DNA from: Syntrophales bacterium
GTDB lineage: Bacteria > Desulfobacterota > Syntrophia > Syntrophales > Fen-1087
NCBI GenBank assembly: GCA_030656035.1
Contig: JAUSOK010000036.1
Coordinates: 1-36,789 of the forward strand
Direction of reading: 5' to 3'
DNA length: 36,789 nt
In this document: piece by piece, positions 6,877-8,121 of the stretch
Numbering within the stretch: position 1 is the first letter of the stretch
How the letters are laid out: each line of letters begins with the position of its first letter
Translations under genes and position numbers: made by a program
The notes under the pieces: model-generated
Seen by the model: the letters and a program-made list of their open reading frames with translations, nothing else
What the model was told of the DNA's origin: nothing
The model's database searches: none

Positions 6877-6901
6877 GGGGACACGACTCCGTCATGTCCC
6901 C
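6877..6901. repeat. 25-bp near-palindromic repeat, copy 1
   Basis: GGGGACACGACTCCGTCATGTCCCC. Contains the stop codon of the gatA-like gene. Exact inverse complement of copy 2. Confidence 0.9.
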
Positions 6902-8121
6902 ATTTTGGACAATCGTACGGCCAGCGACAATAACGGCCCATCGCTCAAACGCGGCCCGATGATCTGAAGACCGTAATCGGCATTGCCGTCGGTACAATAA
7001 CCCGGTATCTGCACCGCGGGGACACCCGCCACATTGGCCGGAAGCGTCAGGACAAAATCGTCATAGAGGCCCTCCATATCCTCTGCCGATACCTCGCGAA
7101 TGCTGCCGGATCGAGTCGGAAAGGCCAGCGCGTCCACCTCGGCGAACAGGCCGTTGATCGCTTTCACAAGTCGGGCCCGGATACGGCAGGCATTTTCGAA
7201 GGCCCCGTAGTTTTCAAACTGGAAATAGGCCCCCTGGAAAAGATACGCCTTGACCAGCGCGCCGAAGGATTCCGCACGGGTTTTGAGATACATGTCATTC
7301 CAGTTTTTTGCAGCCGCCGTCCGGTGACCGTAGCGGACGCCGTCGTATTTGCCGCAGCTTGAAGACGCTTCCACGGCGCCGATGCAATGATGAACGCTGC
7401 GGAAGAGGTCATAATCGGGAAGGCTGACTTCCCTGATCCGGAATCCCGACTTTTCCAGCCTGTCAAGACAGCCCCGGAACGCACGGACTTCCGCTTCACT
7501 CAGGGTTTCAATCGGCTCCTTCATGAAGCCGATTACTTTTATGGAATCATCCGATTCCGTCACGTGATCAAATCGCGGCGCCTCGCTGCCGCACATGGAA
7601 AAGTCCCTGTCGTCATCGCCGGCCATGATTCCCATCACCGCAACGATATCTTCAGGGGCGCGCGCCAGGATTCCCAGGCATTCCATTGAAGGCGCCAAGC
7701 CGATCAGGCCGAAACGCGACACTGTGCCATTGGACGGTTTGAAAGCGAAGGCGCCGACCCGTGCGGCAATGATACGGGCCTCGCCCATCATGTCCGTCAT
7801 GAGCGCCATATCGCTGCGCCCCTCGGACAGAATCCGGCCGGTCGTGTCTCCCGCGAGACCGAGCCCCAGTTCGCTCATGCGGGAGGTGCCGACAAGGGTT
7901 GCGCCGGCCTTTTTCAACCGTTCAATGACCGTGGCGTCTTCAAGGGCGACAAAGCCCTTCAGGGCAACGGAACCGGCATCGGCCGGCCAGCCGCGAACCG
8001 ACAGGCTCGGCTGGATCGTAAGGGATTTTCCCGCCAGCGGTCCCTGTTCCGGGGACATGACGGAGTCGTGTCCCCACACGGACGGCGACGGATCAAGATA
8101 TGTAAAGGCATCTGTCTGCAT
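6892..8121 (-). CDS. GatA-like amidase-signature-fold protein, probably catalytically inactive
   Basis: GPLAG...DATVIERLKKAGATLVGTSRMSELGLG, FKPSNGTVSRFGL, ASSSCGKYDGVRYGHR align with GatA. The GGSSGGS and GSDTGGSIR motifs and the catalytic Lys are not present. Confidence 0.88.
   Translation of the reverse strand: MQTDAFTYLDPSPSVWGHDSVMSPEQGPLAGKSLTIQPSLSVRGWPADAGSVALKGFVALEDATVIERLKKAGATLVGTSRMSELGLGLAGDTTGRILSEGRSDMALMTDMMGEARIIAARVGAFAFKPSNGTVSRFGLIGLAPSMECLGILARAPEDIVAVMGIMAGDDDRDFSMCGSEAPRFDHVTESDDSIKVIGFMKEPIETLSEAEVRAFRGCLDRLEKSGFRIREVSLPDYDLFRSVHHCIGAVEASSSCGKYDGVRYGHRTAAAKNWNDMYLKTRAESFGALVKAYLFQGAYFQFENYGAFENACRIRARLVKAINGLFAEVDALAFPTRSGSIREVSAEDMEGLYDDFVLTLPANVAGVPAVQIPGYCTDGNADYGLQIIGPRLSDGPLLSLAVRLSKMGT
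8051..8075. repeat. 25-bp near-palindromic repeat, copy 2 (inside the gatA-like ORF)
   Basis: GGGGACATGACGGAGTCGTGTCCCC, translated in frame as part of VWGHDSVMSP. Confidence 0.9.

What the first reader, a model, noticed from the sequence alone, without database searches (positions are those of the whole stretch)
6892..8121. GatA homologue that appears to have lost all three catalytic residues, inside an aspS-gatC/gatA/gatB operon
Seen: the ORF follows GatA over most of its length. In GatA, IAIKDN carries the catalytic Lys; here the segment is LTIQPS. The GGSSGGSAAAV cis-Ser loop is absent. Anchored on KPTYGRVSRYGL = KPSNGTVSRFGL, GSDTGGSIRQP aligns to MTDMMGEARII, so the nucleophile Ser becomes Glu. 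The N-terminal helices are also shortened. Known: amidase-signature enzymes need Ser-cisSer-Lys to release ammonia from Gln. Inference: a pseudo-amidase retained as a scaffold, with the amidotransferase using free ammonia, another ammonia donor, or having a new function. About 400 codons without a stop argue against simple decay.
Basis: partly seen in the sequence, partly recalled or inferred. Interest (0 to 1): 0.85.

Follow-up and report, generated by a model that had tools for sequence, protein, structure and literature searches.

The report
Glutaminase-dead GatA in duplicate transamidosome operon
Many anaerobic bacteria, mostly sulfate reducers and syntrophs, carry a spare copy of the machine that turns aspartate into asparagine on transfer RNA, and in this copy the part that normally releases ammonia from glutamine has been disabled yet kept intact by selection, so the machine probably runs on free ammonia or another nitrogen source.

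Summary
The ORF at 6892-8121 (-) is a GatA homologue in an operon aspS-gatC fusion / gatA / gatB. It lacks the catalytic Lys, the cis-Ser loop and the nucleophile Ser, and both glutamine-binding residues. It is not decay: across 199 aligned sequences Lys is Gln in 180, the loop is absent in all, the nucleophile is Glu in 198, the Gln-binding Arg and Asp are replaced in at least 198; dN/dS is 0.11-0.28 and AlphaFold gives a confident GatA fold. Only these three genes recur at the locus. The module is a second set: canonical GatA was found in nearly every genome tested, and an unfused AspRS in nearly all, including isolates. AsnRS may be present (24 of 50) or absent. GatB2 keeps its ATP/Mg residues, AspRS2 its active site; two complete genomes show no dedicated tRNA. 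Best reading: a tethered AspRS-GatC/psi-GatA/GatB transamidosome with psi-GatA as scaffold and GatB amidating Asp-tRNA(Asn) with free ammonia. The loss of glutaminase and its conservation are shown; complex, tRNA and ammonia source are inferred. No description was found in the library searched. New variant of a known kind.

The parts
8137..10254 (-). aspS2-gatC2: 705-aa bacterial-type AspRS with a C-terminal GatC domain (about residues 605-705)
   Evidence: NF009460/PRK12820 full length, 1261 bits, below its 1379 cut-off; AspRS, OB-fold and GAD domains; GatC domain PF02686 at 22.2 bits against a 23-bit cut-off and family-profile match to S. aureus GatC 4.3e-5, with GatC chains as the top four hits
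8140..8454 (-). GatC domain of the fusion
6892..8121 (-). psi-gatA: glutaminase-dead GatA, 409 aa
   Evidence: AlphaFold model pLDDT 91.3, pTM 0.91; Foldseek best match A. aeolicus GatA, TM 0.88
5411..6835 (-). gatB2: 474-aa GatB with kinase/amidotransferase and YqeY domains
   Evidence: NF004012 564 bits, above cut-off 338; PF02934 and PF02637; ATP/Mg residues and zinc cysteines conserved in 80 GatB2, but KEEAHDYRYFPDPDL of GatB1 is replaced by KFEG---PCVPDPSV

Best explanation
The three genes encode a self-contained second Asp-tRNA amidotransferase module, tethered to its own AspRS through the AspRS-GatC fusion. Psi-GatA is a pseudo-glutaminase: it keeps the GatA fold and is maintained as a structural subunit that holds GatB2 and the GatC belt together, but cannot bind or hydrolyse glutamine by the known mechanism. 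AspRS2 charges ordinary tRNA(Asn) with Asp; GatB2 phosphorylates the side chain with ATP and amidates it with ammonia that enters from solution rather than from a GatA active site. It works beside the normal glutamine-dependent AspRS/GatCAB as an ammonia-dependent bypass. Shown: loss of catalytic and Gln-binding residues across the family, purifying selection, predicted GatA fold, fixed gene order, co-inheritance, intact GatB2 and AspRS2 catalytic residues, duplicate status, no dedicated tRNA in two complete genomes. Inferred: complex assembly, scaffold role, tRNA(Asn) as substrate, free ammonia as donor, physiological role.
For: Triad and Gln-binding residues lost across 199 sequences. dN/dS 0.11-0.28 for psi-GatA, with low values for GatB2 and AspRS2 too. 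Order aspS-gatC, psi-gatA, gatB on one strand in 61 of 61 complete loci, with pairwise distances correlated at r 0.86-0.93 and no permutation of 2000 reaching this. No other recurrent neighbour. GatB2 keeps E10, H12, E125, E150 and KNMNS, which correspond to residues modelled to bind ATP and Mg in solved GatB (PMC4027206), while the otherwise invariant HDY-R stretch of GatB1 is lost. AspRS2 keeps its class II motifs and has His at position 30 in 91 of 91; from memory this residue marks non-discriminating bacterial AspRS. tRNA(Asn) in two complete psi-genomes is ordinary, of one kind and U1-A72, the pair linked with GatCAB amidation of tRNA(Asn) (PMC4206432). Precedent: the yeast amidotransferase accepts NH4Cl as donor, and truncating the subunit that supports the GatA site raised ammonia use (PMC4027206).
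Against: No biochemistry exists. His30 is also present in 25 of 28 AspRS1, so it does not single out AspRS2. AspRS2 has lost Arg26 in the anticodon-binding fold (RRRDH to ALRDH), so its tRNA could differ. Tested genomes also have canonical GatCAB and nearly all an unfused AspRS, and about half of the named ones have AsnRS, so the benefit is unexplained. AsnB is not replaced (by my count about 8 of 14 psi-genomes against 19 of 46 others have it).
Confidence: 0.5

Rival explanations
1. The module still amidates Asp-tRNA(Asn), but the ammonia comes from a dedicated glutaminase or another partner protein encoded elsewhere that docks on psi-GatA.
For: Psi-GatA is retained with its own family-specific invariant residues (Glu114, His244, Trp274, Gln296), as a docking surface or new pocket would need.
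Against: No gene other than the three recurs at the 80 loci.
Confidence: 0.15
2. New function: GatB2 activates the Asp side chain but passes it to a nucleophile other than ammonia, or the module acts on another acceptor, so the product is a modified aminoacyl-tRNA or a small molecule.
For: GatB2 carries clade-specific invariant changes (KEEAHDYRYF to KFEG-PC, RKN to QKV), psi-GatA has a new invariant set including Glu in place of the nucleophile, and the module coexists with canonical routes.
Against: No associated gene recurs; no special tRNA in two complete genomes.
Confidence: 0.2
3. A regulatory or quality-control complex: the dead GatA makes an amidotransferase-like decoy that tethers AspRS2 and binds Asp-tRNA(Asn) without amidating it.
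For: Pseudoenzyme subunits often regulate active paralogues (general knowledge); the canonical set is nearly always present.
Against: GatB2 and AspRS2 catalytic residues are kept and GatB2 is more conserved than psi-GatA (mean pairwise identity 0.65 against 0.50).
Confidence: 0.1
4. Isolated decay or an assembly artefact of this genome.
For: The genome is a 209-contig assembly with two glnS copies.
Against: 722 relatives at E up to 1e-60 in the protein search, full-length orthologues in isolate genomes, purifying selection.
Confidence: 0.01

Closest known systems
[quoted passage not shown]
   Same: GatB with intact ATP/Mg residues; GatA fold (TM 0.88 to A. aeolicus GatA); GatC domain present.
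   Different: GatA has no glutaminase triad and no Gln-binding residues and lacks the N-terminal helices; GatC is fused to AspRS; GatB has lost the HDY-R segment.
Asparagine transamidosome (AspRS/GatCAB/tRNA, e.g. P. aeruginosa 4wj3, T. thermophilus 3kfu)
   Same: The same activities, here encoded together; AspRS, GatA and GatB parts are related to the 4wj3 chains.
   Different: Natural covalent AspRS-GatC tether and a dead GatA. A GatC-linker-GluRS chain of similar design is in 3al0 (chain description).
NCBIfam NF009460/PRK12820 bifunctional AspRS/GatC
   Same: The window AspRS matches it over its full length.
   Different: Scores 1261 bits, below the 1379 cut-off; the family name says nothing of the psi-GatA partner.
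[quoted passage not shown]
   Same: A second AspRS beside AsnRS and another AspRS.
   Different: There the second AspRS was acquired from archaea (PMC4206432); here AspRS2 is bacterial-type and has its own dead-GatA set.
Ammonia-dependent carbamoyl phosphate synthetase I (from memory)
   Same: A glutaminase domain kept after loss of its catalytic residue, with the synthase using free ammonia.
   Different: Different fold, no tRNA; analogy only.

Membership tests
GatA (TIGR00132 equivalog) | Score above the curated cut-off | tested here: not met
   242 against 481 bits, although it is still the best family
GatA (TIGR00132 equivalog) | Ser-cisSer-Lys triad | tested here: not met
GatA (TIGR00132 equivalog) | Gln-binding Arg and Asp | tested here: not met
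   residue roles per PMC4027206, position mapping partly from memory of S. aureus numbering
GatA (TIGR00132 equivalog) | Amidase-signature fold | tested here: met
   (predicted structure)
GatB | Above-cut-off match with ATP/Mg residues and YqeY domain | tested here: met
GatC | GatC profile match | tested here: met
   PF02686 22.2 bits, just under its cut-off of 23, for the window alone; family profile finds GatC chains as the top four PDB hits
AspRS | Class II catalytic motifs and GAD domain | tested here: met
Non-discriminating AspRS | Aspartylates tRNA(Asn) | not testable with these tools
   His30 agrees but is also in AspRS1
Transamidosome | Stable AspRS/GatCAB/tRNA complex | not testable with these tools
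   the fusion and fixed operon suggest it

The most novel reading that the evidence does not exclude
A widespread tRNA-dependent module in which GatB activates Asp on tRNA for a nucleophile or purpose other than glutamine-derived amidation, with the dead GatA turned into a new binding pocket.
Probability: 0.2. Interest if true: 0.88.

Novelty: new variant of a known kind. Interest (0 to 1): 0.68.

Why it matters
In the heterotrimeric tRNA-dependent amidotransferases described in the papers read here, GatA supplies the ammonia. A family of more than 700 sequences that has lost this under purifying selection, with a covalent AspRS-GatC tether, would show how glutaminase and transamidase can be uncoupled in nature, and would give a natural test of whether GatA is needed as a scaffold. 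It also means that the database labels GatA and amidase for these proteins are misleading.

Tried and rejected
Viral contigs: no relative. A recurrent partner gene: none over 80 loci. A dedicated tRNA: one locus (L069) has tRNA-Asn just upstream of aspS2, but two complete genomes have only ordinary tRNA-Asp and tRNA-Asn. Replacement of AsnB, of AsnRS or of canonical GatCAB: none supported. His30 as a marker of a division of labour between the two AspRS: not informative. Rfam elements in the operon region of the window and five relatives: none. Literature for a GatA pseudoenzyme, the AspRS-GatC fusion or an inactive GatCAB: nothing found in the library. A single-sequence AlphaFold run of the 705-aa fusion had not finished at submission. 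Coordinates of models are not available in the script box, so where the psi-specific residues cluster could not be computed.

Full report
Observation. The ORF at 6892-8121 on the minus strand codes for 409 aa. Its best family is GatA (242 bits against a cut-off of 481) and its best solved relative is A. aeolicus GatA. In an alignment with 12 orthologues and 5 canonical GatAs, the catalytic Lys is Gln (Gly in one orthologue), the stretch that carries the cis-Ser loop is deleted, the nucleophile Ser is Glu, and about 45 N-terminal residues are missing. In 199 sequences the same holds: Gln for Lys in 180, loop absent in 199, Glu for Ser in 198; the Gln-binding Arg is Tyr or Phe in 198 and the Asp is Phe, Cys or other in 199. 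The roles of these residues follow PMC4027206; the mapping of the Arg and Asp to columns rests partly on S. aureus numbering from memory.

Not decay. Thirteen close pairs give NG86 dN/dS of 0.11-0.28 for psi-GatA, with low values for GatB2 and AspRS2 too. AlphaFold gives pLDDT 91.3 and pTM 0.91, with solved GatA structures as best matches (TM 0.88). The protein database holds 722 relatives at E up to 1e-60 among the candidates scored, named amidase, hypothetical or GatA by their sources where named at all.

The unit. Gene order aspS-gatC, psi-gatA, gatB on one strand holds in 61 of 61 complete loci; median gaps between the aligned parts are 63 and 26 bases; pairwise distances of the three proteins correlate at 0.86-0.93, above all 2000 permutations. 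No other gene recurs beside them in 80 loci. The GatC domain is supported by NF009460, by a borderline PF02686 match and by a family profile whose top four PDB hits are GatC chains.

A second set. The own genome has an intact gatC-gatA-gatB on contig 29 and an unfused AspRS on contig 76, no AsnRS above cut-off, and GlnRS. Among the 60 order relatives 12 further genomes carry psi-GatA at 48-61% identity, and G032 has a 207-aa fragment beside its gatB2; all have a canonical GatB elsewhere. Apart from G007 they also have an unfused AspRS. Four isolate genomes, one of them complete, have both AspRS types. In the class, 23 of 93 good genomes in 17 of 46 genera carry it, so it is patchy. Over 50 named genomes AsnRS is present in 24 and canonical GatA over the cut-off in 48; in the other two, one shows a split gatA and one only lower-scoring amidases. 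The scan of named genomes gave 121 loci, mostly Desulfobacterota; some bear other phylum names and are metagenome bins.

Mechanism. GatB2 keeps Glu10, His12, Glu125, Glu150 and the KNMNS motif, and the zinc cysteines, but differs from GatB1 at clade-wide invariant sites, above all KEEAHDYRYF to KFEG---PC and RKN to QKV. AspRS2 keeps its catalytic motifs and His30 and has lost Arg26 (E. coli numbering from memory). [quoted passage not shown] The simplest reading is an AspRS-tethered amidotransferase that uses ammonia directly, with psi-GatA as scaffold. The yeast amidotransferase does accept NH4Cl, and truncating the subunit that supports its GatA site raised that use (PMC4027206). That the donor is free ammonia, that the substrate is tRNA(Asn), and that the proteins form a complex are inferences.

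Limits. The benefit of a second module is unexplained. AsnB is not replaced. No paper describing the module was found in an open-access library that misses most subscription journals. The window genome is a fragmented assembly, but the finding rests on many others including isolates.

Noticed in passing
window 28161-30112 (-): Group II intron (RF02005, RF00029) with reverse transcriptase/maturase at 28273-29742; an IS91-like transposase fragment at 31716-32483 nearby.
   Followed up: no
window 10346-11359 (-): Patatin-like phospholipase with a weak match to CBASS lipase (35 bits against cut-off 200), just upstream of the operon.
   Followed up: no
G000 contigs 96 and 67: Two full-length glnS in one genome assembly; either a real duplicate or binning contamination.
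   Followed up: no
L158 (G053 contig 27): A third, unfused AspRS 67% identical to AspRS2, next to a PurF-like glutamine amidotransferase gene; similar neighbours appear in G038, G046 and G057. It may be the unfused ancestor type.
   Followed up: partly
L069:3378-3453: tRNA-Asn(GTT) with U1-A72 directly upstream of aspS2, same strand; the only such case in 80 loci.
   Followed up: partly
G007 contig 35: The one genome of 100% estimated completeness where AspRS2-GatC seems to be the sole AspRS; may be an assembly gap.
   Followed up: partly
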